DNA of 64,000 nt from Synechococcus sp. MW101C3 (lineage in GTDB: Bacteria; Cyanobacteriota; Cyanobacteriia; PCC-6307; Cyanobiaceae). The first letter of the stretch is position 1; the number at the start of each line of letters is the position of its first letter. Of this stretch, positions 14,991-34,286 are shown in pieces. Location of the stretch: positions 186,001 through 250,000 of the forward strand of contig NZ_NQKX01000002.1 of assembly GCF_002252635.1 (NCBI RefSeq), in the 5' to 3' direction. The notes beneath the pieces were generated by a model. That model saw only the letters and a program-made list of their open reading frames with translations. It was not told the DNA's origin and did not search any database. The translations under genes and the position numbers were made by a program.

Positions 14991-16361
14991 TCAGGTGCCC
15001 CGCACGACAGCACTCAGCAGCGAAAGGTTGATCAGGACGATGACGCTGGCGCAGAGCCAGCCCATGGCCTGTAGCCAAAGCGGTGCCCTCAACTCACCCA
15101 TCAGGCCACGCCGTCCGCAGAACCAAACCAGCGGGATCACCGCGAACGGCAACTGCAGAGACAGCACTACCTGGCTCAGCACCAGCAGGTTCGTGGTAGC
15201 CCTTTCCCCGAACAGGATCACCGTGGCCATCGCCGGGATCAAGGCGAGACCGCGGGTGAGCAGCCGCCGCTTCCAGTCCGGCAGACGGATCTGCAGGAAC
15301 CCCTCCATCACGATCTGGCCGGCCATGGTGGCCGTGAGGGTGGAGCTCTGGCCCGCCGCCAGCAGGGCCACCCCGAACAGCACGCTGGCGAGCGACGTGC
15401 CCAGCATGGGAGTCAGCAACCGGTAGGCCTCGCTGAGGTCGGTGACCGGCTGCGGCAACCGGCCGTAGAAGCTGCCGGCGGCCAGCACCAGGATCGAGAC
15501 ATTGATCAGAAAGGCCAGGCTGAGGGCGATCAGCGTGTCCCAGGTGCTGAAAGCCAGGGCCCTGCGCTGCGCCACCTGGCCGCCGATCCAGCGGCGGGTT
15601 TGCACCAGCGAGGAGTGCAGATAGAGGTTGTGGGGCATCACCGTGGCCCCGAGAATCCCGGCCGCCAAAAACAGCTGCTGCCCGTCTCTGAGGCTGGCGG
15701 CCTGGGGTATGAAGCCCTGGCCCACCTGGCCCCAGTCCGGCTGCAGCAGGAACATCTCCACCGCGAAACAGCCCCCCACCAGGGCCACCAGGGCAATCAC
15801 CAGGGCCTCCAGCCGGCGGATCCCGAAGCGTTGCAGGGCCAGCAGCAGCAGGGTGTCGGCGGCCGTGAGGCCCACACCCCAGGGCAAGGGAAGACCGAAG
15901 AGCAGCTGCAGGGCAATGGCGCTGCCCACCAGCTCGGCCAGGTCGCAGGCAATGATCGCCACCTCGGCCAGCAACCACAGGGGAATTCGGCAGAACCGCG
16001 GCAGAAGCTGGCTGCAGGCCTGGGCCAGATCCAGCCTTGTGGCGATGCCCAGCCGGCAGCAGAGCGACTGGAGCACCATCGCCATCAGGCTGGAGAGCCC
16101 GATCACCCAGAGCAGGCGATAGCCGAACTGGGAGCCAGCCGCCAGATCCGTGGCCCAGTTGCCTGGATCCATGTAGCCCACGGCCACCAGGTAGCCAGGG
16201 CCGAGCACCCGCAGGAAGGTGCGAAGCATGCCCAGGCCGGCAGGCACCTCCACCGTCTGGTCATTGGTGCGCGGGGCCGTGCCCAGCGGTGCATCAGGCA
16301 TGAAGCGACGCCAGCGGAGCTGGAGGCTAAGGCGAGGGTGGCTGCGATCCTGCTGGGGCAT
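14991..16361 (-). CDS. mntH: Nramp-family divalent metal transporter
   Basis: 456 residues, about eleven membrane helices. The two unwound metal-site helices are clear: MDPGNWATDLAAGSQFGY (Asp-Pro-Gly-Asn) and GATVMPHNLYLHSSLV (Met-Pro-His-Asn). Nramp proteins import Mn, Fe or similar divalent cations with protons. The promoter upstream (16431-16461) is a MerR-family promoter with a 19-bp spacer and a perfect palindrome, the same architecture as in front of the Zn/Cd ATPase at 19170. The CadR-type regulator is transcribed divergently from the other side of that operator. This predicts metal-activated expression, which is unusual for an importer. Confidence 0.9.
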   Translation of the reverse strand: MPQQDRSHPRLSLQLRWRRFMPDAPLGTAPRTNDQTVEVPAGLGMLRTFLRVLGPGYLVAVGYMDPGNWATDLAAGSQFGYRLLWVIGLSSLMAMVLQSLCCRLGIATRLDLAQACSQLLPRFCRIPLWLLAEVAIIACDLAELVGSAIALQLLFGLPLPWGVGLTAADTLLLLALQRFGIRRLEALVIALVALVGGCFAVEMFLLQPDWGQVGQGFIPQAASLRDGQQLFLAAGILGATVMPHNLYLHSSLVQTRRWIGGQVAQRRALAFSTWDTLIALSLAFLINVSILVLAAGSFYGRLPQPVTDLSEAYRLLTPMLGTSLASVLFGVALLAAGQSSTLTATMAGQIVMEGFLQIRLPDWKRRLLTRGLALIPAMATVILFGERATTNLLVLSQVVLSLQLPFAVIPLVWFCGRRGLMGELRAPLWLQAMGWLCASVIVLINLSLLSAVVRGT

Positions 16362-20103: not shown

Positions 20104-20760
20104 TCACAACCAGTCGACAGGAATCGCCTCCCAGCCGGCGGGATCCCACGGGGCCATCAGCGCCTCCAGCCCCCGCAGCTCGGCTGCGTCTTCCGGCAGC
20201 AACCAGGCCTCTTCCCATCCATCGTTGATCACCACCGGCATGCGGTCGTGGATCGGACGCAGCAGGGCGTTGGGGGTGGTGGTGAGGATGCAGCAGGTCT
20301 GGAGTTCGCTGCCATCGGGAGCGATCCAGTGGTCCCACAGGCCGCCCAGCCAGAAGGGGGCGCCGTCCTGACGGCGGATCCAGAAGGGCTGCTTCTTCCC
20401 TTTGGGTCCATGGCCTTCCCCTTCCGGCGGCGGCCTCCATTCGTAGAAGCCATCGGCAGGCAGCAGGCAGCGGTGATGGCGCCAGGGACCACGAAAGAAA
20501 GGCTTCTGGCTCACCGTCTCGCTGCGGGCATTCATTGGCCGACTCTTGCCGCGGGTGTCCTTCAGCCAGCTCGGCACGAGGCCCCACTGCGCGTAGCCCA
20601 CCTCCAGTCGGCCCTGTTGCTGGCGCTGGATCAGAAGCGGTTCGCCGGGCCGCACCTGCTGCCGGGGCTGGTACTGCTCGAGGAAACCCTCCGGCAGCGG
20701 ACCCTTGAGCCTTGGCAGCAACTGATCGATCGTGGTGGTGAGCGAGTAGCGGCCACACAT
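20104..20760 (-). CDS. SRAP-domain protein (YedK/HMCES-like, SOS-response-associated)
   Basis: 218 residues from ATG 20760, chosen because the catalytic Cys must be residue 2 (MCGRYSLT) after Met removal. Family motifs in order are: QVRPGEPLLIQ, QWGLVPSWL, KSRPMNARSETV with the conserved Asn and Glu, RCLLPADGFYEW, LTTTPNALLRPIHDRMPVVI with the conserved His. SRAP proteins form a covalent thiazolidine link through Cys2 to abasic sites in single-stranded DNA, shielding them from cleavage. It stands alone here; no LexA box was identified. The assignment is very secure. Confidence 0.93.
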   Translation of the reverse strand: MCGRYSLTTTIDQLLPRLKGPLPEGFLEQYQPRQQVRPGEPLLIQRQQQGRLEVGYAQWGLVPSWLKDTRGKSRPMNARSETVSQKPFFRGPWRHHRCLLPADGFYEWRPPPEGEGHGPKGKKQPFWIRRQDGAPFWLGGLWDHWIAPDGSELQTCCILTTTPNALLRPIHDRMPVVINDGWEEAWLLPEDAAELRGLEALMAPWDPAGWEAIPVDWL

Positions 20761-21293
20761 CAGCGACGCCTGCGGATCCGATTGGGCTTCTCCCAATCTG
20801 AGTGACCTGACTACTGGCTGAGGGGTTTCGCAGGGAGTGAGTCTGAGGGGACCAAACCCACACTGGAGACGGCCACGCTGCGGTGGATCGGTTTGCCGTA
20901 CTGACGCCACGGTCAATCGGATCTATCAATGAATCAGAGGCCTCGACCAGGGCAGCGCGAGCCCAAGCCCTGCAACCGGCCCAAGGGCGCCCGACACGGG
21001 GCGCCCTTCTCATTGGGAAGATCAGCAGATCATCACCAGCCCTGGTGGTTATTGGGGCAGCTGGGACGGCAAAGCCATGGCTCCACAGAGATTGATGAGG
21101 CGGAGATGCTCGAGCCGACGCAGTGGGCATGGCTGGAGCCATGCCGATGGTTTATCTCGCTCTGCCGTGTGTTTCGCAAGCCAGAGCTCCCAGGCCTGGA
21201 CCCAGCCCGAGCTTAAAACTCAAAAGGACAACAGTGCCACTGCAACTGTGAGAATAAGGTAGACTGCCCGGCTTCCTTGCTCCCGGCCGCACC
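20761..21293. other. Intergenic stretch with a strong hairpin
   Basis: About 530 bases between the SRAP gene and the next plus-strand gene. Overlapping short frames show no family motif. It contains a 9-bp perfect inverted repeat AAGGGCGCC...GGCGCCCTT (20983-20991 and 21000-21008), terminator-like but followed only by CTCATT. The bases near 20920-20952 (ATGAATCAGAGGCC context) resemble those near 14870-14903, a short dispersed repeat of unknown meaning. Just before the next gene, AATAAGGTAGACT (21250-21262) could hold a -10 element. Confidence 0.4.
20983..21008. terminator. GC-rich hairpin, terminator-like
   Basis: Nine-base arms AAGGGCGCC and GGCGCCCTT with an eight-base loop. A T-run after the stem is weak (TTCTCATT on the plus strand). 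No gene on either strand ends close to it, so it may terminate an unannotated short transcript. Confidence 0.4.
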
Positions 21294-21920
21294 ATGACTG
21301 ATCTCGCTCCAGCGACCTTGCGGTGGCTCAATCAGCTCGACAGCACGACCCGCAGCATCGACAGCCTTGTGGATGAGGGGTTCGGTGGTTTTTCCTTGCT
21401 GGATCTCTTGCCATGGATGAACGAAGGCCACGCCATTGCAGCCATCCAAGCGATCGACTGGGTGAAGAGCCAGCCGGACGAGGACGGTGAAATGGCGCTG
21501 ATGACCGCTGATGCGGAGGGGTTGGACAAGCTTCTGGAGTGGATGCTCGAAACCCGTGGCAGCTGTCCGATGGTCTATGCACCGGAGGAGGAGGTTGTCG
21601 TGCCGGACAGTGTTCCCTTGCTGCGCCCCACGGCCTACAACCTGCCGGAGGGTATGTCCTCCGATGAGGTGTTTGATGAGGAGTTCAGCGAGAACCTTTC
21701 AGAGTTGTTCGCGGCCATCAAGGACTCCTATGGGAACCACGCGCACCTCTACCGAATCGACTATGGCCAGCTGGTGGAGACGGTCGAACACGGCCTCTTG
21801 CTTGCCGGTCAGTTTATCGACCTCAACGACGGTGAATTGTTTGACTTCAGCATGGACGCGATCAATCAGCGGATTCGCTACCAATCCACTGGCCGCTACC
21901 ACAAAGGCTTTCCTGCCTGA
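21294..21920 (+). CDS. Hypothetical acidic protein
   Basis: 208 residues from ATG 21294. It is acidic and without signal peptide or membrane segments. Segments such as FSLLDLLPWMNEGHAIAAIQ, LDKLLEWMLETRGSCPMVY and SDEVFDEEFSENLSELFAAI suggest a soluble, mostly helical protein. No known family was recognised. Coding pattern and codon use are regular, and a possible -10 element lies upstream, so the gene is probably real. It ends just before a decayed fragment of a helicase gene on the other strand. Confidence 0.6.
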   Translation: MTDLAPATLRWLNQLDSTTRSIDSLVDEGFGGFSLLDLLPWMNEGHAIAAIQAIDWVKSQPDEDGEMALMTADAEGLDKLLEWMLETRGSCPMVYAPEEEVVVPDSVPLLRPTAYNLPEGMSSDEVFDEEFSENLSELFAAIKDSYGNHAHLYRIDYGQLVETVEHGLLLAGQFIDLNDGELFDFSMDAINQRIRYQSTGRYHKGFPA

Positions 21921-21925
21921 TCCGG

Positions 21926-22022
21926 GACAACCGATTGATCTGCTCCCCTTCCGCCACCGTATTGGCAATCCCCGTTGCCAGGCCCCGGGGGGCGGCGTCG
22001 CCATCGCTGGCGGCGAGGGCTT
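21926..22022 (-). pseudogene. Remnant of a second RecB-like/helicase gene with an internal in-frame deletion
   Basis: Read on the minus strand this fragment gives ASDGDAAPRGL joined directly to TGIANTV, then EGEQINRL. The intact helicase at 22731-26270 has TASDGDAAPRGL, about 30 residues of helicase motif VI region, then VTGIANTVEEAEQINRL near its C-terminus. So the fragment is the end of a homologous gene from which the region between was removed in frame. It has no start and no flanking coding capacity. It lies about 700 bases downstream of the intact gene's stop, with a hypothetical gene between. Confidence 0.7.
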
Positions 22023-22105
22023 TCCCGACCGATGGGGGTCAGGCGGGCCTTGGGGTGTGTAGGCATGGGGTGTGAGGTCTTGGGCTGCTGAGTTGGGTTT
22101 CAATG

Positions 22106-22522
22106 TCACCGATCTTCCTCGTACCAGATGGAGTTGCGCCCATTGCTCTTGAATCCTCCGGTGAATGCACGAGCATTCCGGAAGGCGACGACGATGCGCC
22201 CCTTCTCGATGCATTCTTCTACGTGGGCGCGAGCGGCTTGTATGGAGAGGGAGTCCTTGTCTTTCGAGTGCTTGAGGATCTCGTGCTCGACGTACTCATC
22301 AAGACGCTTTGGGTCCATCACGTGCGTCGCAACCGGGTCAATCTCAGCGGCAAGTAAGAAGTGATGCCCATTGAGCGTGCCAATCCTCAGGATGCGCTCA
22401 TTGCGTACGCGGTTCAGCGATGCGAGCCAGAAACCAGTGATTCCGTGGCGTGAGCCAGATGGCTTGGCTAGTACTGCATCGACCACCGCATCTACCAGCC
22501 AAGACTTGACGTTGAACGACAT
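22106..22522 (-). CDS. Hypothetical protein
   Basis: 138 residues from ATG 22522 (MSFNVKSWLVDAVVDAVLA). A soluble-looking protein with mixed charge: KPSGSRHGITGFWLASLNRV, HHFLLAAEIDPVATHVMDP, DEYVEHEILKHSKDKDSLS, and a basic/aromatic C-terminus. It has no membrane segment and I recognise no family. Position between the intact helicase and its remnant, in a region rich in mobile and defence-like genes, suggests accessory status. Base composition is slightly lower in GC than core genes. Confidence 0.5.
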   Translation of the reverse strand: MSFNVKSWLVDAVVDAVLAKPSGSRHGITGFWLASLNRVRNERILRIGTLNGHHFLLAAEIDPVATHVMDPKRLDEYVEHEILKHSKDKDSLSIQAARAHVEECIEKGRIVVAFRNARAFTGGFKSNGRNSIWYEEDR

Positions 22523-22730: not shown

Positions 22731-25700
22731 TCATCCTTCCATAGGAACTTGGGCCAATCGGCACAACCGATTGATCTGCTCCGCCTCCTCCACCGTGTTG
22801 GCGATACCCGTGACGAGGCCGGGTGAGCCCACAACGATCGAGAGGCAACGGGCACGGCTGATGGCGACATTGAGCCGGTTGGGCTGCAGCAGGAAACCCA
22901 GGCCCCGGGGGGCGGCGTCTCCGTCGCTGGCGGTGAGGGAGTGAATGGCCACGGGGGCCTCCTGGCCTTGGAATCGATCCACCGTTCCCACCCGTGCCCG
23001 GTTGCCCAACCTTTGCTGGAGCCGGTTCACCTGCACGTTGTAGGGGGCGGTCACCAGGATGTCGTCTGGGGTCAACAGCCCACGGCGTTCAGCGCCACTG
23101 CTGGCATGGCGGTAACTGGAACCCAGCAAGGCTTCCACTAGCTGGGCGATGCGTTCGATCTCCTCCTCTGAGCAGACGCTGCAGCTGGTGTGCTCAGCCG
23201 CCTCAAACACCAACCCCTGGCTGGGGAGGACTCCACCCTTGCTGCCGGTGAAGGGCTCCCGCCACTCGATCCGGTTGATGGCATTGGCGGGGCTGGCCTT
23301 GAGGCGGCAGTCGTAGAAGAGCGCCGACACCATGGCGGTGAGCGAGGGTTCCATCCGCCAGCTGGTGGCCAGGAACACGCCCCGATCGGCCGGCACCACC
23401 GCCTTGTCCTGCATCAGATACTCCAGGCAGGAGCTGCCGCTTTCTCCCGGATGATCGGCCTGGCTGGGCTGGGCCAGTTGCTGCTGGTCGCCCACCAGCA
23501 GGATTCCTCGGGCGCAGCGAGCCATCACCAGCAGATTGGCCAGGGACATCTGCCCCGCCTCATCCACCACCAGCCAGTCGAAGAGCTCCTCCATCACGGG
23601 GCGAGCGAACATCCAGGCCGTGCCGCCCACCACGGCCATCGAACCTGTGAGCGCATCGGGTTTGCAGAGCGCCACGGGCTGGCCGACCAGGCCTTTGTCG
23701 TCCTTGGCGGTGCTGCACTTCACCACCTGCTGGCTGAGGCCACGGGTGGCGCAGGCGCTGTGGGCCTTGAGCAGCAGGTTGTTGATCGCGGCGTGGCTGT
23801 TCGAACTGATCGCCACCCGCAGACCGCGCTCCACCAACTCGGCAATGACCTCGGCGGTGACGGTGGTTTTGCCCGTGCCTGGGGGCCCCTGGAGCGCCAG
23901 GGTCAGATCGCTGTGGGAGGCCAGAAACTCCGCCAGTTGGGCGGGCAAAGCGCTCGGATCGGCTGCGAGGGCAGCATTGAGCCCGATCAGGGGCTCAATG
24001 GCACGGCGCTCCAGCAGGTGAACGATGGCGGCAGGGATGGGCTTGCCACCATCCACCCAGCTCTCGGCCTGGGCCAGCAGGCTGTCCCGTAGGAGCTCGC
24101 TGATGTCCTCGGGCACCTTGATCAGGGCCATGGGACCCCTGGGAAGCTCCACCGCCTGGCCGGCGGCTTGCCGCTTGTCTCTGGCGCTCCAGGGGTACTT
24201 GAGGGTGAGGGTGCCCCGCTCGCCGTCGATCACCACGGCCTGGAGCTTCTGGCCGGTCTCGGGGATCTCCAGCTTGATGGACCCATCTCCCTGGGCGACA
24301 TGGAGTTTGAGGGTCTGACTCGGATCGAAGCAGAAGGTGTGCCAGTCGGAGCCGGTTCTGGGACTCGGCACGCTCTCAACGCTTTGCCAGACGGCTCCGT
24401 TGATGGCCTCGCCATCGGCGTCGAGATCCTCAGGAGTCTGCAGGGCCTTACCCCTGCGGTCGAAGTAGGCCCACCAGGCCACCTTGGCCTCGCGGTGATG
24501 GAACGGCAGCAGCTGGGCCAGCAGGCGCTGCACCCGCCAGCTGAGGCTCCGTGAACCCAGTTCTTCCTGGGCGATCAGTTCGGCTTCTGGGGCATTGGCG
24601 GCTGGATCGCTCTGGAGCTGCTCGGGCAACTCGGCGATCAACCGGGCGCTGAGGGCTTCCAGGGGCCAGGGTTCGGCCTCAGGGCGTTCCTCCTCCGGAT
24701 GCTCGAGCGGTTGCTCGGGCAGGCCCTGGGCGCGGCGCAGCTCCAGCAGCCAGTCGTGCAGCAGCACGGTGGAGACGCAGTCGTCGCGGTTGTAGTCCTC
24801 GATCGCCTGAAGCCTGGGGCTGCCTTCTGGGGCGGGTCCCGGCAGGGAAGGCTCACCGGAGGACTGCCAGTGCAGGTAGGCGACAACAGAATCACCGGCG
24901 TTGGTGACATCGGCGCCACGAGGGCCCATGTAGAGCCCCTCCACCTTCTTGATCGAGTAGCTGCCCTCACCGAGGACGATCGAGCGGGTGACGATCGGCA
25001 GCAGGTCGCAGAGCAGATCGCTGCGCAACCAGTCGTCGATCACCGCCTCACGGGTCTGGTGTTGCTGGGAGAGGCGGCGCATCGCCGACTTCTCATAGCT
25101 GGCGTAGTGGTAGACGTGCAAGGCTGGATGACGGCGCCGTCGTTCCTCCACCCAATCCACAAACCCCTCGAAGGCCCGCTTTTCTCCCAGGGGGCTATGA
25201 CCCCACCAGGCGATGAAGGCTGCCGGCTGAGCCGGGACCTCCCGGTAGCAGGCCCCAAAGAGGTATTCGAGCTTCTTGGCAGCAACGGCATCCTGGATGC
25301 CCTCCATGTCGAACCAGATGTCGCCGGCATCGGCGGCGGGCAGGGCGGCCAGGCCCTTGCCCGGCTGCAGGGGGCGCACCAGGAAGGCGGGCTTGCCATC
25401 GGGGCCGTGGGGGGTGAGCTGCAGCTGGGCCTGCTGACGCAGCTCGAAAAGGGCCTCGGCCGCCAGGCCAGCAATGCTGGCGCCGGGAGGCAGTTCGGCT
25501 AGCTGCTCGATCGTGTGGATGCCGGCGGCCTTGAGCTTGAGGCGCTGGTTCTGGCGCATGTTCGCCACCAACACCAGATCCCGCTCGGCGATCAGGCGCT
25601 CCTCAATGAAGGCGCTCCAGCTGCCGTGATCACCGGGTTCATCCTCCGGTGGTGAGGCGGAATCGAAGGAGGCACAGAAATCGCGGTAGCGGTTGCGGAG

Positions 25701-26270
25701 CTGTTGGTACCAGGCCCAGAAACGATCGATGTCGTAGGTCTGGAAGCGGCCACCACCGAGAAACAACTCGAAGCGATCGGGCCGGTGCCCCAGCAGTGGG
25801 GTGAGCAGTTCGCAGTAGGCACAGGCCTGGACCAGGAAGGTGGTGCGGGGCTTACTGGCCAGCTTGCACTCGATCGGGATGTAACTCCAGTCGCCGAGAT
25901 CTGAGGGTTGGGGAATCCTGCGCAGCACATCGGCCGAGCCGCGGATCTCTCCGTTGTTCAGCGAGGCCTGATGGATGAAGTCAAACCCTGCTTGCATCGC
26001 CTCGCGGGTGGCGACGTAATCAGCCTCGTTCTGCTTGCCGGCCAGGCGGGCGATGCGATAGCCCTCGGCTTCCAACTGGTTGAGCAACACCTGCTCGAGG
26101 CGCAGGCCATCGGCGAACAGTTGCTCATCAAGGGAGGAGGGGGGTGGCTGCTCGCCAGTGAAAAGACCTCTGGCTTTGAGCTCCTCCCACCATGCACCGA
26201 TGCGGGGGCTGCGGCTGAAGAGGGAGAGCTGGCTGGGGGTGATGGGGCGAGAGGAATTAGGATTAGACAT
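22731..26270 (-). CDS. TM0106-type RecB-like nuclease / RNase H-like / DNA2-UPF1-like helicase
   Basis: 1179 residues. The N-terminus (~1-170) resembles RecB-family nucleases: DEQLFADGLRLEQVLLNQL, then SLNNGEIRGSADVLRRI and YIPIECKLA, the acidic...GxxD...ExK layout. Then comes a DnaQ/RNase H-like part (DIWFDMEGIQD, HVYHYASYEKSAMRRL, EDYNRDDCVSTVLLHDWL). The C-terminal third is an SF1 helicase: Walker A LALQGPPGTGKTTVTAEV, DEAGQ (WLVVDEAGQMSLANLLVM), LVGDQQQLAQP, DRFQGQEA and NVAISRARCLSIVVG. The combination is that of the TM0106-like family, probably acting in DNA repair or defence. The gene for an AT-rich GIY-YIG nuclease ends 18 bases upstream on the same strand. Confidence 0.88.
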   Translation of the reverse strand: MSNPNSSRPITPSQLSLFSRSPRIGAWWEELKARGLFTGEQPPPSSLDEQLFADGLRLEQVLLNQLEAEGYRIARLAGKQNEADYVATREAMQAGFDFIHQASLNNGEIRGSADVLRRIPQPSDLGDWSYIPIECKLASKPRTTFLVQACAYCELLTPLLGHRPDRFELFLGGGRFQTYDIDRFWAWYQQLRNRYRDFCASFDSASPPEDEPGDHGSWSAFIEERLIAERDLVLVANMRQNQRLKLKAAGIHTIEQLAELPPGASIAGLAAEALFELRQQAQLQLTPHGPDGKPAFLVRPLQPGKGLAALPAADAGDIWFDMEGIQDAVAAKKLEYLFGACYREVPAQPAAFIAWWGHSPLGEKRAFEGFVDWVEERRRRHPALHVYHYASYEKSAMRRLSQQHQTREAVIDDWLRSDLLCDLLPIVTRSIVLGEGSYSIKKVEGLYMGPRGADVTNAGDSVVAYLHWQSSGEPSLPGPAPEGSPRLQAIEDYNRDDCVSTVLLHDWLLELRRAQGLPEQPLEHPEEERPEAEPWPLEALSARLIAELPEQLQSDPAANAPEAELIAQEELGSRSLSWRVQRLLAQLLPFHHREAKVAWWAYFDRRGKALQTPEDLDADGEAINGAVWQSVESVPSPRTGSDWHTFCFDPSQTLKLHVAQGDGSIKLEIPETGQKLQAVVIDGERGTLTLKYPWSARDKRQAAGQAVELPRGPMALIKVPEDISELLRDSLLAQAESWVDGGKPIPAAIVHLLERRAIEPLIGLNAALAADPSALPAQLAEFLASHSDLTLALQGPPGTGKTTVTAEVIAELVERGLRVAISSNSHAAINNLLLKAHSACATRGLSQQVVKCSTAKDDKGLVGQPVALCKPDALTGSMAVVGGTAWMFARPVMEELFDWLVVDEAGQMSLANLLVMARCARGILLVGDQQQLAQPSQADHPGESGSSCLEYLMQDKAVVPADRGVFLATSWRMEPSLTAMVSALFYDCRLKASPANAINRIEWREPFTGSKGGVLPSQGLVFEAAEHTSCSVCSEEEIERIAQLVEALLGSSYRHASSGAERRGLLTPDDILVTAPYNVQVNRLQQRLGNRARVGTVDRFQGQEAPVAIHSLTASDGDAAPRGLGFLLQPNRLNVAISRARCLSIVVGSPGLVTGIANTVEEAEQINRLCRLAQVPMEG

Positions 26271-26288
26271 GAAAGGAAGTTATGGCTT

Positions 26289-27158
26289 TCAGTTTAGGTT
26301 TAGGCCGTGGACCCTAGTCCCGAATGCTTTCTTGTAAAAGGACTCCAGTCTAATTACATCATCTTTGCTGCTTCCTGAATCCATTGTGTGAAGAATGCTA
26401 TAGATTAAGTTGTCTGCTCCATTCGCGTTGATGTGACTTCTTAGCATTGCATTTCCATTGTGACCGCCGTTGACATATCCCCGCCAGCGCCCCCATAATC
26501 CCTGATTCTGCATGCCAGTAGAGCTATATGCAGAGCCAACGTATGAGTCGCCAGTCGATGCATCTGTGATCACATAGATGCCCGCGACTGAAGAGAGAGC
26601 CGCCTTCCAGGTGGGTGCTCCACCTCCACCAATTCGAAGATCAAACTGTTGCCGATTCAAGTGAAACGAGTAAAAACCTGGAAAGGGGACATCGGATATG
26701 CCAAAGGGGAATTCTCTAATCTCAATAAACTGAAACCCCATTCCAGTATTGCCAATATTTAAGTATCTGTTTCGGCATGGGCTACTCCACTTAAAGGTCA
26801 CGCGGCCAAACCATTTATTAATCGCGTTGTCACTAAATGTATTTTCAATTATAAACACGGTATCTCCATTGGCATTGAGTCCGGTTTCCCTAGGGCCAGA
26901 AGAGACATCGTAAGCTCCTGCGAAGATATATCGCTCATTCCGATCGAGTGGCAAAAGATTTATGATAGTTCCAGCGTTTCTAAAGTTATTTCTATTCTGG
27001 TATTTGTTTTCAGTCGACATTCCATCTTTACCTTTAAAAACTAATACGTCCTGATAATAAGATAAACTATTTCCACTACGAGGAAACACGTGAGCAAAGA
27101 CTGGCGCAGTCAGGTTGTAGCCATTTGCGAAGTCCTGAAGATTTTCAACTTGGATCAT
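26289..27158 (-). CDS. GIY-YIG nuclease-family protein, AT-rich
   Basis: About 289 residues from ATG 27158; the frame stays open to 27203. The C-terminal ~110 residues form a GIY-YIG domain: GIYVITDASTGDSYVGSAYS, LWGRWRGYVNGGHNGN with the conserved Arg, VIRLESFYKKAFGTR with the metal-binding Glu, and HGLNLN with the final Asn. The first ~165 residues (aromatic- and Asn-rich, e.g. NRYLNIGNTGMGFQFIEIRE) are an unrecognised domain, probably target recognition. GC content is far below the neighbours, pointing to horizontal acquisition. It lies 18 bases upstream of the large nuclease-helicase gene and is likely cotranscribed with it. A restriction-like or defence role is inference. Confidence 0.8.
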   Translation of the reverse strand: MIQVENLQDFANGYNLTAPVFAHVFPRSGNSLSYYQDVLVFKGKDGMSTENKYQNRNNFRNAGTIINLLPLDRNERYIFAGAYDVSSGPRETGLNANGDTVFIIENTFSDNAINKWFGRVTFKWSSPCRNRYLNIGNTGMGFQFIEIREFPFGISDVPFPGFYSFHLNRQQFDLRIGGGGAPTWKAALSSVAGIYVITDASTGDSYVGSAYSSTGMQNQGLWGRWRGYVNGGHNGNAMLRSHINANGADNLIYSILHTMDSGSSKDDVIRLESFYKKAFGTRVHGLNLN

Positions 27159-27332
27159 TGATGCTCCCGTTGGCTGGTGGATGGCAAGATTACATTCGCA
27201 CACACTGTGCCGAGCTGCTCAGCACGTGAATCTCTACGAGTTCTACATGGCTTAAGCGATGTCATCCAATTATGTGAGCAAAGGGAGTGCATTGTCACAT
27301 GCTATTGACACCATGCAGCGCGCCAGTCTTAG

Positions 27333-27968
27333 TTATGCATGCATATTCAATGGAAGTTGAATCGCTGTCAACACTCCACTCACATATGCCCCCGTATCAA
27401 TTCCGATCCGATGTGGCAACCGGGTCACCTGGTAGTCGTTGCGGAACGTATGGCCGTGCACCACGGTGTAAGGCAGCCCATGGGGCTTGGAGAGGAAGGG
27501 TTTGCGGATCCAGATCAGATCGTCGAAGGCCTGGCGCTCCAACGGAACCCCCGGCCGCACCCCGGCATGCACAAACAGGTAGTTGCCGCGAACCGCCGTG
27601 ACCGGCAATTGCTCGAACCACTCCCGGTGTTCGCGCGCCAGGGGCAGCAGTGCGGGGTCGCCGCCGTTGCAGCGCCACAGCTCGAAGGCGAGTCCTCGTT
27701 TTGTTGACGCCAACGACTCGACCAGCATCTGCTCGTGGTTGCCGCGCAGCACCGTCACCGCCGCCAGGCCAAAGGCGCCGGGGTTCTCCTGCAGCTGCCA
27801 GATCCGCTCCAGCACCTTGCGATCACCATCGGGTTCGGGGGCCCGATCGATCAGATCACCGAGAAAGATCAGCTCCACACCTGAATCCAGATGCGGCAGA
27901 AGTTGCTCCTCCAGCAAGGCGGCGCAGCCGTGCACATCCCCGATCGCCACCACATCAGGCCTGGTCAT
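27333..27968 (-). CDS. Metallophosphoesterase, PPP-type serine/threonine phosphatase-like
   Basis: 211 residues with the full PPP/bis-tetraphosphatase set of metal motifs: GDVHG (VVAIGDVHGCAALL), GDLIDR (IFLGDLIDRAPEPD), GNHE (VLRGNHEQMLV), then LFVHAGVRPG and VVHGHTF with the two late His. Members remove phosphate from proteins or cleave diadenosine polyphosphates. The start overlaps the end of the VWA gene by 14 bases on the same strand, so it is the third gene of a merR-vwa-phosphatase operon. Substrate is unknown, but the VWA protein or its partners are candidates. Confidence 0.88.
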   Translation of the reverse strand: MTRPDVVAIGDVHGCAALLEEQLLPHLDSGVELIFLGDLIDRAPEPDGDRKVLERIWQLQENPGAFGLAAVTVLRGNHEQMLVESLASTKRGLAFELWRCNGGDPALLPLAREHREWFEQLPVTAVRGNYLFVHAGVRPGVPLERQAFDDLIWIRKPFLSKPHGLPYTVVHGHTFRNDYQVTRLPHRIGIDTGAYVSGVLTAIQLPLNMHA

Positions 27969-29211
27969 CGTCGCTCTCCCAGACGTTGGTGTTGGACCGC
28001 ATCGACTCCCGGCTCAGGCGCTTCCGGCTGAGCTTGGGATCGCTCTTGAGCAAGGACAGTTTCTGGTTGAGCAGGTCCAGCTCGCGGGTGATCCTTGGAG
28101 TCGCGGGCATCGACAACAGACTGTCGCGCAGATTCCTCAGGCTGAGGCTTGCGGTGTCGTGATCGCCGCGATCGAGTTCGCTGATCACGCGCCTGCGTTC
28201 GCGGTCGGCCTTGAAGAGAGCCAGTTGTTCGGCCACCGCCTTATCGGGGTCCAGTGCCCCGAGTTCTTCGCTTTCCATCACCGGCAACTGCAGATGCTCG
28301 ATCAGGATCTGGCGTTCGCTGCTACCGGGGGCATCCCAGGCCAGGCGCACGCTGAGCATCTCCTGATTGGGGATCCAGGCGGGCAGCTTGAGCTGCACAC
28401 CCACATTGAGCTCCTGGCCGGTGCGCAGGTTGGGGAGCTGATGGTTGCCGGCGCCGGTGGGCTTGAGGTCGTTGAGCAGATCGACCACCTCGGCGCCGTG
28501 CTTGCCCCGTAGACCAATGCTCACCCGCCGCCCGAAGGTGGTGGCCAGGCCCTGGAGCTCGGAGGCGTAGAGATCCGCCAGCTGGCTCGGGGTTTCGATG
28601 TGGGCCAGGGTGCCATCGCCTGCGGCGGCCATGGCCCCCATTAGGTCTTCATCGAAGTCCACCCCCAGGCCAAAGCCACTGGTGCTGATTCCCCGTTGGG
28701 TCAGACCCGCCACCTTGCTGGCGATCTGATTCTGGTCAGTGAGGCCCTCATTGGCCTGGCCATCGGACAGCAGCAGCACCCGGTTCATCTGGGTGGGATC
28801 GAGGTGTTCGGCCACCTGTGTGGCTCCCGCCAGCCAGCCATCGAAGAGGGCCGTGCAGCCACCGCTGTGGATCGTGTTGATCGCAGCGATGAACGGCTGT
28901 GGATCGATGACGGGGGTGGAGGGCACGACCACCTTCACCTCATCGTCAAAGGTGACGATGGCGAGGCGATCACGGCTGGTGAGTTCCCCGGCCAGGAAGC
29001 GGGCCGCCTTGCGGGCGTAGCTGAGCTTGGTGCCGCTCATCGAGCCGGAGCGGTCGATCACCAGGGCCAGGTTCAGCGGCGGCCGCTGCTGGCGTTGGGG
29101 ATCAACGTCAAGGGCTGGGGGTGTGATCGTGAGCAGCAGATCAAGGCGTGACGGGCGATCAGAGGCCACCGCCGGCCGCAGAGGCCGGAAGCGCAGGGTG
29201 GGTTGGGTCAT
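27955..29211 (-). CDS. VWA-domain protein
   Basis: 418 residues, no signal peptide or membrane helix, so cytoplasmic. The von Willebrand A domain (~45-215) has an intact metal-ion-dependent adhesion site: LVIDRSGSMSGTKL (DxSxS), GGCTALFDG (Thr) and LLSDGQANEGL (Asp). The C-terminal half (~220-418) has a beta-rich part, then a charged helical tail with DRERRRVISELDRGDHD. Cytoplasmic VWA proteins usually scaffold complexes with MoxR ATPases, kinases or phosphatases. Here a phosphatase gene overlaps downstream and a MerR-like regulator lies 34 bases upstream. No MoxR ATPase or kinase gene is adjacent. Confidence 0.88.
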   Translation of the reverse strand: MTQPTLRFRPLRPAVASDRPSRLDLLLTITPPALDVDPQRQQRPPLNLALVIDRSGSMSGTKLSYARKAARFLAGELTSRDRLAIVTFDDEVKVVVPSTPVIDPQPFIAAINTIHSGGCTALFDGWLAGATQVAEHLDPTQMNRVLLLSDGQANEGLTDQNQIASKVAGLTQRGISTSGFGLGVDFDEDLMGAMAAAGDGTLAHIETPSQLADLYASELQGLATTFGRRVSIGLRGKHGAEVVDLLNDLKPTGAGNHQLPNLRTGQELNVGVQLKLPAWIPNQEMLSVRLAWDAPGSSERQILIEHLQLPVMESEELGALDPDKAVAEQLALFKADRERRRVISELDRGDHDTASLSLRNLRDSLLSMPATPRITRELDLLNQKLSLLKSDPKLSRKRLSRESMRSNTNVWESDDDQA

Positions 29212-31191: not shown

Positions 31192-32961
31192 ATGGCACGC
31201 CTTCCGGGAAACGACTCTCAAAAGATCTATGAAGCGTCGAAGTGCTTTCTCGAAAACTGCCTGCTCCAGGATGGCTCTCTTGTCTTTGCTGGCGAATCAC
31301 TTTGGCAGGCCGAACTGCTGCAGCATATCCATCGAGCTTTTGTAGAGGCCCCCGATGAAGGTGATCGATCCTTTATCGAGAAGCTTCGTGATCAGGTCAG
31401 GCCAGCTGGCCAGGACGTGGTTCGCCTTGCAGGCGAGCTCCTATGTGTGTACTTCTTGTTCCCTTCGAGTGTCAGTGGAATCCGAAAACGGGAAGTCGTC
31501 AATGAAGTTTTTGGTTGGGTTGGGGACAGTCTTCCTCAGAGCAGTCTTGTTTCCCAGGCCTTTGAGCATGGCATCGGTAGCGGCGGTCAGGGTTACAACA
31601 CCCGTCGACCATTTGAAATCGCATTCCTTATCAACTTCACCATTGCCTGGAAGAAGCTCAACTCCGCCGAGCAGCAGGAGACAGCAGCGGATCCGTGGCG
31701 TTTCCAAGAGCTTGTCAATGGCATCGAGGATGCAGAGTCAAAGCAACTCCGGCACATGATGCTCCACCTGCTTTTCCCTGACGAATTTGAGCGCATCGCG
31801 AGTGGAAGTCATAAGAGACGGGTCATCGCAGAGTTCTCAGGTTTGATCCCAGACGAATCGGACAATGAAGATCGAAATCTTTTGGCAATCCGGAGAGCTC
31901 TCGAGGCATTGCTGCCGAATCAAAGTCTCGACTTTTACTGGCCACCGTTGGAAGCAGCCTGGGACAAGGATTCGTCTCTTGAGGTCATCCAGTACAAGAA
32001 ACAGATCGTGTTATTTGGCCCACCAGGAACTGGAAAGACGTTTCGAGCCAAAAAGATGGCTCAACGAATTATCCATTCAGTTGCACTCTCACAATGGGGG
32101 CCTGCTCGATATTTTAAATCACAGGCAGAGATCACAGAGGCCATCAAGACCAATGTGCACCGTTTACAGCTTCACCCCTCCTACGGCTATGAAGACTTTG
32201 TACGTGGCTTGCACATCTCTGATAACGGTGCAACAGAATATCGGCCAGGTTACCTTCCAAGACTAATCGAAGACATCGAGAAGATACCGAGAGAGGTGCG
32301 TCTTCCACATGTGCTGATTCTCGATGAGATGAACCGAACAGACCTGAGTCGGATGTTGGGCGAGTGTTTTTCGTTATTGGAGGATCGGAATCAGACGATC
32401 GAATTGCCAGCGCGCAATGGGAACGAGGAAACACTCAAGTTGCGGATTCCAGATGATCTGTTTGTGATTGGAACGATGAATCTGATCGACCAGTCCATTG
32501 AACAGATTGACTTTGCCCTGCGTCGCCGCTTCCTTTGGGAATTGTGTCCCTTTGACGCCGAGGCACTTATCGCGGCTGCCGAAGCTAAATGGGATGATCT
32601 TGGTTGCGGCATTTCCTGGGATCGGGTAGAAGCTGACTTTCGAGGACTGGCAGGTGCAGCCACCGAATTGAATCGCGAGATTCACAACAGTGATGTTTTG
32701 GGTTCCCAGTATGAAATCGGACACACCTACCTTCTTGATGTGGTGGTGTTCCTCCGGAATTTCCTTGGCCTGCGTCCAACACGTAGGCAGAACTATCTCT
32801 GGAACAGGAATGGCAAAGCGCTTGAACCAGTTATTCAGGTATGGAAGCTATCCCTGCTGCCTCTGTTAGAACAGTACTTGGCCGGGCTCGATTCCAATTC
32901 TCGGAATGGGGAGCTGGATAAGCTCGCCAAGGTCTTTCTCAGGTCTTCGGTGATTGAATGA
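31192..32961 (+). CDS. mcrB: McrB-like AAA+ restriction subunit
   Basis: 589 residues. Residues ~270-520 form a McrB-type AAA+ GTPase/ATPase: Walker A LFGPPGTGKTFRAKKMAQ, a PSYGYEDFVRGL motif, Walker B HVLILDEMNRTDLSRMLGE, and the McrB signature region GTMNLIDQSIEQIDFALRRRF. The first ~265 residues do not resemble the E. coli McrB DNA-binding domain and are probably a different modified-base or target-recognition module. McrB rings translocate DNA and activate the McrC nuclease. The stop overlaps the mcrC start in ATGA. The GC content is lower than that of the flanking core genes, fitting an acquired defence cassette. Confidence 0.9.
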   Translation: MARLPGNDSQKIYEASKCFLENCLLQDGSLVFAGESLWQAELLQHIHRAFVEAPDEGDRSFIEKLRDQVRPAGQDVVRLAGELLCVYFLFPSSVSGIRKREVVNEVFGWVGDSLPQSSLVSQAFEHGIGSGGQGYNTRRPFEIAFLINFTIAWKKLNSAEQQETAADPWRFQELVNGIEDAESKQLRHMMLHLLFPDEFERIASGSHKRRVIAEFSGLIPDESDNEDRNLLAIRRALEALLPNQSLDFYWPPLEAAWDKDSSLEVIQYKKQIVLFGPPGTGKTFRAKKMAQRIIHSVALSQWGPARYFKSQAEITEAIKTNVHRLQLHPSYGYEDFVRGLHISDNGATEYRPGYLPRLIEDIEKIPREVRLPHVLILDEMNRTDLSRMLGECFSLLEDRNQTIELPARNGNEETLKLRIPDDLFVIGTMNLIDQSIEQIDFALRRRFLWELCPFDAEALIAAAEAKWDDLGCGISWDRVEADFRGLAGAATELNREIHNSDVLGSQYEIGHTYLLDVVVFLRNFLGLRPTRRQNYLWNRNGKALEPVIQVWKLSLLPLLEQYLAGLDSNSRNGELDKLAKVFLRSSVIE

Positions 32962-34286
32962 AACTAATCGCTAAGGACTGTTCCCCGCTGAACCCGCAGC
33001 CGACGGCGGCAGAAGCTGACTGGCTACGGAGGGTCGCAGCGAGCATTTCTACCGGTGATTTCGTCGTCCCGATCTCAGGCGACCGCGATGATGACGAACC
33101 TATCGTGTACTGCTCGTGGGATGGTACATGGTGGGCCGGTCGGTACGTGGGCTCCCTGTCTTCTGAAGGCCACTGTTTGACGATTGAGCCTCGCTTCGGC
33201 CTGGCTGCACTTAGAAGCTGGCTGTCAGAGGCAGCCTCTGTTGTACTGATTGAGTCGCCAGGGCATTTGCGCCAGGACGAGTCCTTCATTGTGCAGTTGT
33301 TGGCAGCAGTCTGGGCGCACGGTTTTGTCGAGGCCGCGCGCCATGGTTTGCCAGCTCTTCGCCGAGATGTCGCGAGCAAAGGTCCAACGATCCGCGGGCG
33401 ACTTGATGTCACTGCCTCAATTCGATTGATTGCATCGAAAAGCAGGGAGGTGGTCTCCATCAGATCGGAACGGTCGTTGGATCACGCCGCATCCAATGCC
33501 ATCATCGCCGCCTATTGCGTTTTGCGCCGGTGGCTCGGAGTTCCTGACGATCAATGGATGCCCACTCGCGCAAAGGAACTCATCCCACACTTGATGGCTG
33601 TAACAGGACCACGTCCACGCGTACCTACAAAGGCTGAACTAGATCATATTCGTTATACGCCGATTACCGTAAGGTTTGCCCCGATTGCTGAGTTATCTCG
33701 CCAAATCGCAAATCGACGCGGACTTGCTGCTGATGTGGATGCAAGTGGCGAAACCAAAGGCGTTCTTCTGGATGTGGCCGAACTATGGGAGATGTATGTA
33801 CTAAGCCTTCTCCGTAAAGCAGCGACTCCGCTAAATGTGAAGCACGGCACTCGGGAGAGAAACGCCTCCAAGAAGCTTCTCTGTAGTGACGTCGATGGGC
33901 AGGGGCTCGGTACCTTGATCCCTGATGCCGTCCTCTGCAGAGACAACGATGTTCTAGCCGTGGCCGATGCGAAGTACAAGCGCCTGCACAAGTCTCGGCT
34001 TGCGCCGAACGGCCCTCAGAGAGAGGATCTTTACCAAATGGCTGCCTACTTGGCTAGATATACTCCAACTGTCGGCAACGCGGCATGGGGGCTCCTTGCA
34101 TATCCCGTCGATCCGTCACAGCCAGAGGTTGCTCCAGCAGAACTATTCAGCCCATGGAGTCTAGATCAAGGGAAGAAGGTTGTATTCACATCACTTCCGC
34201 ATGACGCTGAACTTGCGACACAGAAGCTACGGAGTCTCATCGCACTTATGACATCTGAACGTTCCATCTTGGGTCATCGCTCGTGA
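32958..34286 (+). CDS. mcrC: McrC-like nuclease subunit
   Basis: 442 residues. The N-terminal half carries the McrC beta-rich domain (EGHCLTIEPRFGLAALRSWL), which inserts into the McrB ring. A helical middle follows (RSLDHAASNAIIAAYCVLRRWL), then a PD-(D/E)xK nuclease core: TLIPDAVLCRDNDVLAVADAKYKRL, with REDLYQMAAYLARY as the following helix. Together with the preceding AAA+ gene this makes a complete type IV system that cuts DNA carrying modified bases. ATGA overlap with mcrB indicates coupled translation. An IS3-family fragment begins immediately after the stop codon. Confidence 0.9.
   Translation: MKLIAKDCSPLNPQPTAAEADWLRRVAASISTGDFVVPISGDRDDDEPIVYCSWDGTWWAGRYVGSLSSEGHCLTIEPRFGLAALRSWLSEAASVVLIESPGHLRQDESFIVQLLAAVWAHGFVEAARHGLPALRRDVASKGPTIRGRLDVTASIRLIASKSREVVSIRSERSLDHAASNAIIAAYCVLRRWLGVPDDQWMPTRAKELIPHLMAVTGPRPRVPTKAELDHIRYTPITVRFAPIAELSRQIANRRGLAADVDASGETKGVLLDVAELWEMYVLSLLRKAATPLNVKHGTRERNASKKLLCSDVDGQGLGTLIPDAVLCRDNDVLAVADAKYKRLHKSRLAPNGPQREDLYQMAAYLARYTPTVGNAAWGLLAYPVDPSQPEVAPAELFSPWSLDQGKKVVFTSLPHDAELATQKLRSLIALMTSERSILGHRS

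What the first reader, a model, noticed from the sequence alone, without database searches (positions are those of the whole stretch)
22731..27158. GIY-YIG nuclease plus RecB/RNaseH-like/helicase giant as a two-gene unit
An AT-rich GIY-YIG nuclease gene with an unrecognised ~165-residue N-terminal domain ends 18 bp before a 1179-residue TM0106-type nuclease-helicase on the same strand. Nuclease plus helicase pairs of different ancestry are a common form of defence systems, and the base composition of the first gene indicates recent arrival. I do not recognise this pairing as a named system.
Basis: partly seen in the sequence, partly recalled or inferred. Interest (0 to 1): 0.6.

Follow-up and report, generated by a model that had tools for sequence, protein, structure and literature searches.

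The report
Swappable defence-gene slot beside nuclease-helicase
In this cyanobacterium a recently arrived DNA-cutting gene of the known Uzume anti-phage family sits just before a resident nuclease-helicase gene; close relatives carry a different gene, usually another DNA cutter, in that same spot, so it looks like a swappable defence slot and not a fixed two-gene system.

Summary
In detail: a 289-aa GIY-YIG gene (26289-27158, minus, 44% GC) ends 18 bp before a 1179-aa RecB-like/RNase H-like/SF1-helicase gene (22731-26270, minus, 66% GC). The GIY-YIG protein, including its 'unrecognised' N-terminal part, is a UzuA (Uzume) homologue (PADLOC 1e-44) with all GIY-YIG catalytic residues. The helicase is the known COG2251/TM0106 architecture, spread over many phyla. 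The two are not a conserved pair: UzuA lies beside none of 42 other Cyanobiaceae helicase loci, and in 80 loci from other genomes only one has UzuA nearby, one gene removed. What is conserved is downstream: a 138-aa gene (22106-22522) found in 6 of 400 family genomes, always directly after this helicase. The place of the GIY-YIG gene is an exchange slot. At the same chromosomal site, relatives with helicases 70-96% identical to one another have there an Mrr-like nuclease (3), McrBC, a PD-(D/E)XK candidate defence gene, an unknown gene with GmrSD, or a small protein. The 1 kb before the helicase is then usually non-homologous while both flanks align. Similar turnover occurs at other helicase sites. 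Whether slot gene and helicase act together is unproven.

The parts
26289..27158 (-). UzuA-family GIY-YIG nuclease gene (289 aa), current occupant of the slot
   Evidence: PADLOC UzuA 1.3e-44; TIGR01453 1.8e-6; GIY-YIG catalytic residues invariant in 9 homologues
26664..27158 (-). N-terminal UzuA-specific domain (about residues 1-165), function unknown
   Evidence: aligns with UzuA homologues on plasmids; AlphaFold model unusable (pLDDT 31)
26295..26585 (-). GIY-YIG catalytic domain (residues 192-288): G193/Y195, Y206-V207-G208, R224, H233, E272, N287
26271..26288 (-). 18-bp gap between UzuA stop and helicase start; no terminator-like site
22731..26270 (-). 1179-aa RecB-like / RNase H-like / SF1 helicase (COG2251/TM0106 type with tandem AAA)
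24747..26045 (-). TM0106-type region (residues 76-508): RecB-like nuclease (D114, E134-x-K136, Q148..Y152) and RNase_H_2 exonuclease (D321, E323, D422, D497)
   Evidence: TIGR03491 1.1e-58 and PF13482; residues invariant in 19 sequences
22812..23936 (-). Upf1/Dna2-type SF1 helicase (residues 779-1153), Walker A GPPGTGKT 795-802, Walker B DEAGQ 903-907
26271..27332 (.). exchange slot between the phosphoesterase stop and the helicase start, AT-rich
   Evidence: non-homologous in relatives while both flanks align; GC drop
22106..22522 (-). conserved 138-aa gene directly downstream of the helicase (unknown family)
   Evidence: found in 6 of 400 Cyanobiaceae genomes, all six directly downstream of this helicase
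21898..22035 (-). fossil of a second helicase 3' end (matches helicase residues 1106-1179 with a gap)
   Evidence: tblastn 9e-11; counterparts in L094, L095, L096
27333..27968 (-). calcineurin-like phosphoesterase, anchor gene on the other side of the slot
   Evidence: PF00149; syntenic in 8 helicase loci
27955..29211 (-). vWA-domain-like protein, anchor gene (label by recognition, not by a profile search)
   Evidence: syntenic, 82-87% aa identical to the window's in the six closest loci
21294..21920 (+). convergent 208-aa gene closing the locus
   Evidence: syntenic in L035, L092, L094, L095, L096

Best explanation
This is a chromosomal defence locus with a resident nuclease-helicase (plus a small downstream partner gene) and, immediately upstream of it, an exchange slot whose present occupant is a UzuA-family GIY-YIG nuclease. 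Shown: the slot gene differs between close relatives while the helicase and both flanks are kept; the occupants are mostly AT-rich and mostly of known or candidate defence-nuclease families; the UzuA gene has an intact active site and lies 18 bp from the helicase on the same strand. Inferred: occupants are swapped by homologous recombination in the conserved flanks (phosphoesterase/vWA on one side, helicase on the other); the slot gene is co-transcribed with the helicase; UzuA recognises invading DNA through its N-terminal domain and cuts it with the GIY-YIG domain; the helicase unwinds broken or replicating foreign DNA and degrades it with its RecB-like and RNase H-like nuclease domains. In this reading the two proteins are neighbours in one defence locus, and at most facultative partners.
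For: UzuA membership and active site. Slot turnover: 1 kb upstream of the helicase has 0% homology in window-L035, window-L092, window-L093, L094-L096 and L095-L096, while helicases are 89-93% identical in DNA, 1.5-3.5 kb upstream is 85-100% covered and the downstream kb is 67-100% covered in all but the L093 pair. Even within the Mrr family, L035 and L092 share only 58% aa in the slot gene against 96% (helicase), 98% (vWA), 93% (phosphoesterase), 95% (138-aa gene) and 94% (208-aa gene). Occupants: Mrr-like, McrBC, PDC-S26 PDDEXK_4 at 2.5e-115, GmrSD plus an unknown gene. The Mrr-like gene occurs in 3 of 400 family genomes, all three in this slot. Mosaic history of the locus (window 208-aa gene 89% nt to L095 but 65% to L035; helicase the reverse, 78% and 93%). 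Turnover at other sites: L075/L076/L077, L108/L109, L103/L104. Defence neighbours: Shango SngB+SngC, CRISPR Cas10/Cas1, McrBC on a plasmid, Abi.
Against: No experiment links either gene to phage resistance. Co-transcription is inferred from an 18-bp gap only; the promoter-like site upstream (27298-27269) is close to chance expectation. Occupant GC is not always low: the 147-aa protein in L094 is 0.62. One locus (L093) has antisense McrBC in the slot, so the slot does not demand an operon partner. In some other lineages the downstream side varies too (L100/L102, L089/L090), so part of the pattern may be general island turnover.
Confidence: 0.66

Rival explanations
1. A genuine modular system: the helicase is a common executor and each slot gene is an interchangeable sensor or nicking nuclease that must work with it, like the variable effectors paired with HerA or in Lamassu.
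For: The slot gene is usually codirectional and close (a crude ORF rule gives 32 of 43 loci codirectional within 260 bp); gaps of about 20-30 bp for unrelated occupants; the Mrr-like gene occurs in the family only in this slot; an independent UzuA-helicase neighbourhood in a gammaproteobacterial MAG; several GIY-YIG-type (T5orf172) genes near other helicases.
Against: UzuA and Mrr-like homologues stand without this helicase on plasmids; UzuA is known as a single-gene system (from memory of Millman et al. 2022); some proteobacterial helicase orthologues inspected have only a divergent WYL regulator upstream; L093 has antisense McrBC.
Confidence: 0.2
2. A dedicated two-gene GIY-YIG + helicase defence system.
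For: 18-bp gap, same strand, both nucleic-acid enzymes; one distant co-neighbourhood (L176).
Against: Absent beside 42 of 42 other Cyanobiaceae helicases and 79 of 80 others; UzuA homologues stand alone.
Confidence: 0.04
3. Plain defence-island clustering: unrelated accessory genes accumulate at a tolerant chromosomal site and adjacency to the helicase means nothing.
For: The same site in a helicase-free congener (G002) carries a CRISPR array; helicase decay products and mosaic flanks are common.
Against: Turnover is sharply confined to the kilobase before the helicase start while the other neighbours stay, at more than one chromosomal site; the downstream 138-aa gene is never seen without the helicase.
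Confidence: 0.3
4. The GIY-YIG gene is a homing endonuclease or selfish element that inserted here.
For: GIY-YIG domain most like group I intron endonucleases (TIGR01453); PADLOC 'HEase' weak hit.
Against: Full-length match to UzuA is far stronger (1.3e-44 against 1.4e-4); no intron, no split gene; relatives have other genes at the same place, not an empty homing site.
Confidence: 0.05

Closest known systems
Uzume (UzuA), single-gene anti-phage system (PADLOC PDLC03973/03974; Millman et al. 2022, listed in PMC12926258)
   Same: full-length profile match, same N-terminal domain plus GIY-YIG layout, intact catalytic residues
   Different: only about 25-30% identical to other members, and here it is packed 18 bp before a helicase; anti-phage activity not tested
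COG2251 / TM0106 family RecB-like nuclease with tandem AAA (architecture noted in PMC3985635)
   Same: RecB-like + RNase_H_2 + SF1 helicase in one chain; widespread (annotated so on plasmids)
   Different: nothing in architecture; new here are its patchy distribution in Cyanobiaceae and the variable upstream slot
Mokosh (MkoA/MkoC) and Dna2/Upf1-type helicases
   Same: helicase-domain similarity only
   Different: no Mokosh-specific domains; RecB-like and RNase H-like parts are absent from the match
Helicase/ATPase systems with exchangeable effectors (HerA-SIR2, HerA-DUF4297, Lamassu) - from memory
   Same: a constant motor gene with varying nuclease-like neighbour
   Different: here most occupants are also known stand-alone defence genes, and joint action is not shown
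Recombination-driven defence islands/hotspots - from memory
   Same: fixed flanks, variable defence cargo
   Different: here the variable position is a slot of one or two genes abutting one conserved gene

Membership tests
Uzume (UzuA) | full-length match to the UzuA profile, not just the GIY-YIG domain | tested here: met
   1.3e-44 over profile 47-278 of 278; second model 1.6e-26
Uzume (UzuA) | intact GIY-YIG active site | tested here: met
   G193, Y195, Y206-V207-G208, R224, H233, E272, N287 invariant in 9 homologues
Uzume (UzuA) | acts as a single gene without partner | not testable with these tools
   plasmid homologues stand alone, but activity cannot be tested
Uzume (UzuA) | protects against phage | not testable with these tools
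   needs phage challenge
TM0106/COG2251 RecB-like nuclease-helicase | TIGR03491 region above curated cut-off | tested here: met
   199 bits against cut-off 97
TM0106/COG2251 RecB-like nuclease-helicase | RNase_H_2 and tandem AAA helicase with intact motifs | tested here: met
Dedicated two-gene GIY-YIG + helicase system | conserved adjacency of the two families | tested here: not met
   0 of 42 other family loci; 1 of 80 wider loci, not adjacent
Exchange slot upstream of the helicase | non-homologous content between conserved flanks in close relatives | tested here: met
Exchange slot upstream of the helicase | slot evolves faster than other positions of the locus in a large sample | tested here: inconclusive
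   8 loci at this site and several sister pairs elsewhere; some pairs vary downstream too
Mokosh | MkoA/MkoC domain layout | tested here: not met
   only the helicase portion matches

The most novel reading that the evidence does not exclude
The RecB/RNase H/helicase protein is a shared executor of a modular anti-phage system whose recognition or nicking module is exchanged as a cassette at a slot directly before its start codon; UzuA, Mrr-like, PDC-S26 and other nucleases are alternative front ends feeding one helicase-exonuclease.
Probability: 0.2. Interest if true: 0.75.

Novelty: new variant of a known kind. Interest (0 to 1): 0.45.

Why it matters
It turns an apparent new two-gene system into a testable picture of how a small-genome cyanobacterial family swaps single defence genes at one fixed place beside a conserved nuclease-helicase. 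If slot gene and helicase cooperate, a large and widespread but uncharacterised family (COG2251 with helicase) gains a role; if not, the slot is a good place to prospect for new single-gene defences in cyanobacteria.

Tried and rejected
Homing endonuclease reading: weaker match than UzuA and no homing context. Mokosh reading: helicase domain only. Phage origin: no UzuA or helicase relatives in viral contigs; helicase absent from phage records; UzuA in only three phage records, two of them Klebsiella phages over 80 kb. AlphaFold models of the 138-aa gene and of UzuA were unusable (pLDDT 39 and 31), so no fold search was run. A UzuA alignment was too divergent for a contig scan. Literature on TM0106 helicases as defence: none found in the held library; COG2251 architecture found. 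The original Uzume paper is not held.

Full report
Observation. Both genes are as described: the GIY-YIG ORF ends at 26289 and the helicase starts at 26270 on the minus strand, with an 18-bp gap. GC is 0.44 for the first and 0.66 for the second, against 0.64 for the window. The window is base 186001-250000 of contig 2 of a 3.0-Mb genome; relatives brought in by the helicase search are Vulcanococcus, Synechococcus and Prochlorococcus, so the family is called Cyanobiaceae here by inference.

What the proteins are. The GIY-YIG protein is a UzuA homologue along its length (PADLOC 1.3e-44). The GIY-YIG residues G193, Y195, Y206-V207-G208, R224, H233, E272 and N287 are invariant in nine diverse homologues. 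Its N-terminal domain is therefore a family feature. UzuA homologues occur on 385 plasmid records, most of the listed ones annotated 'GIY-YIG nuclease family protein'; in the four inspected they stand alone. The large protein has a TM0106/RecB-like nuclease, an RNase_H_2 domain and an Upf1/Dna2-type helicase, all with intact motifs. This architecture (COG2251 with tandem AAA domains) is already in the literature (PMC3985635). It occurs in many phyla and on 57 plasmid records; none was found in phage records.

Is it a pair? No. The helicase is patchy in the family (49 of 400 genomes). UzuA was searched for in all fetched family loci and was found beside none of the 42 other helicases with upstream sequence (the 43 loci include one from another family, L039). 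Full-length UzuA is in 5 of 390 genomes of the class. Among 80 helicase loci from a public genome collection, one gammaproteobacterial MAG (L176) has UzuA upstream of the helicase, but with an ATPase gene between and a gene that looks like a transposase beside it. The gene that does travel with this helicase is the 138-aa gene at 22106-22522: 6 of 400 genomes have it, all directly downstream of the helicase. The naive chance is 2.6e-6, but the genomes are related (three genera).

The slot. Eight helicases, including this one, lie at the same chromosomal site, after the MerR-like, vWA-like and phosphoesterase genes. Between the phosphoesterase and the helicase there is UzuA (window), an Mrr-like nuclease (L035, L092, L095; Mrr_cat match below Pfam's cut-off in two, none in L095, which is homologous to them), McrBC on the opposite strand (L093), a 147-aa protein (L094), an unknown gene with GmrSD (L096), and a PD-(D/E)XK PDC-S26 candidate defence gene (L099). 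In pairs with helicases 89-93% identical in DNA the kilobase before the helicase shows no homology, while the sequence 1.5-3.5 kb upstream and, in all but the L093 pair, the kilobase downstream align; L094-L095 is partly homologous there (0.31). Two Mrr-bearing loci from one genus share 96% of helicase residues but 58% of Mrr residues. The Mrr-like gene is found in 3 of 400 family genomes, only in this slot, although distant relatives sit in other settings on plasmids. Comparable upstream turnover appears in unrelated helicase contexts (L075/L076/L077 with a Schlafen AlbA_2 gene in one; L108/L109; L103/L104). Some other pairs vary on both sides. The helicase tree groups the window with L035, L092, L093 and these with L094-L096, with strong support.

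How it may work. Shown: anatomy, slot turnover, intact active sites. Inferred: homologous recombination in the flanks swaps occupants. The locus is mosaic: the window's 208-aa gene is nearest to L095 while its helicase is nearest to L035. A helicase 3' fossil between the 138-aa and 208-aa genes, shared with L094-L096, suggests that an earlier helicase copy stood there and that the 138-aa gene may once have been its slot gene. UzuA would cut recognised DNA; the helicase would process ends or stalled intermediates. Joint action is possible but unproven.

Comparison and verdict. UzuA and the helicase are new members of known families. The slot arrangement resembles defence hotspots and effector-swapping motor systems, and is best called a new variant of a known kind.

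Noticed in passing
window 31192-34286 (+): McrB-like AAA ATPase and McrC gene pair, lower GC (0.51-0.56) than the window, about 2 kb beyond the vWA gene, past its MerR-like and peptidase-like neighbours: a second defence system close by.
   Followed up: partly
L131 2739-3597 and beyond (G002, same genus): A CRISPR array (28-nt repeat, about 62-bp spacing, 14 copies in the stretch examined) lies about 7-9 kb beyond the phosphoesterase anchor in a congener without the helicase.
   Followed up: partly
L139 10044-10769 (-) (G276): An internally deleted helicase kept as a 241-aa ORF: residues 7-42 joined to 981-1174, between a DUF6998 gene and a GmrSD_N gene.
   Followed up: partly
L105 4454-4696, L107 (oriented) 15503-16105, L082: Other helicase remnants (5' end before a slot, or 3' ends kilobases away), suggesting repeated integration and decay of helicase units.
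   Followed up: no
L036, L037, L079, L080, L084, L085, L094: A 147-192 aa unknown protein lies just upstream of the helicase in seven loci of separate clades, in L085 one gene away; it is found in only 3 of 72 relatives.
   Followed up: partly
L077 3728-4795, L086 2483-3301, L105 3272-3892: T5orf172-type GIY-YIG genes, a different subfamily from UzuA (PDC-S57 in L105), lie within 2-4 kb upstream of other helicases.
   Followed up: partly
window 20104-20916 (-); L227, L240, L242: SRAP (SOS-associated peptidase) genes recur near this helicase or near Mrr-like relatives.
   Followed up: no
L225, L227: In alphaproteobacterial plasmids the helicase has a divergent WYL-domain regulator directly upstream, as several defence systems do.
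   Followed up: no
L072 8053-11540 (G358): Shango genes SngB (3.5e-124) and SngC (1.7e-205) directly upstream of the helicase on the same strand.
   Followed up: no
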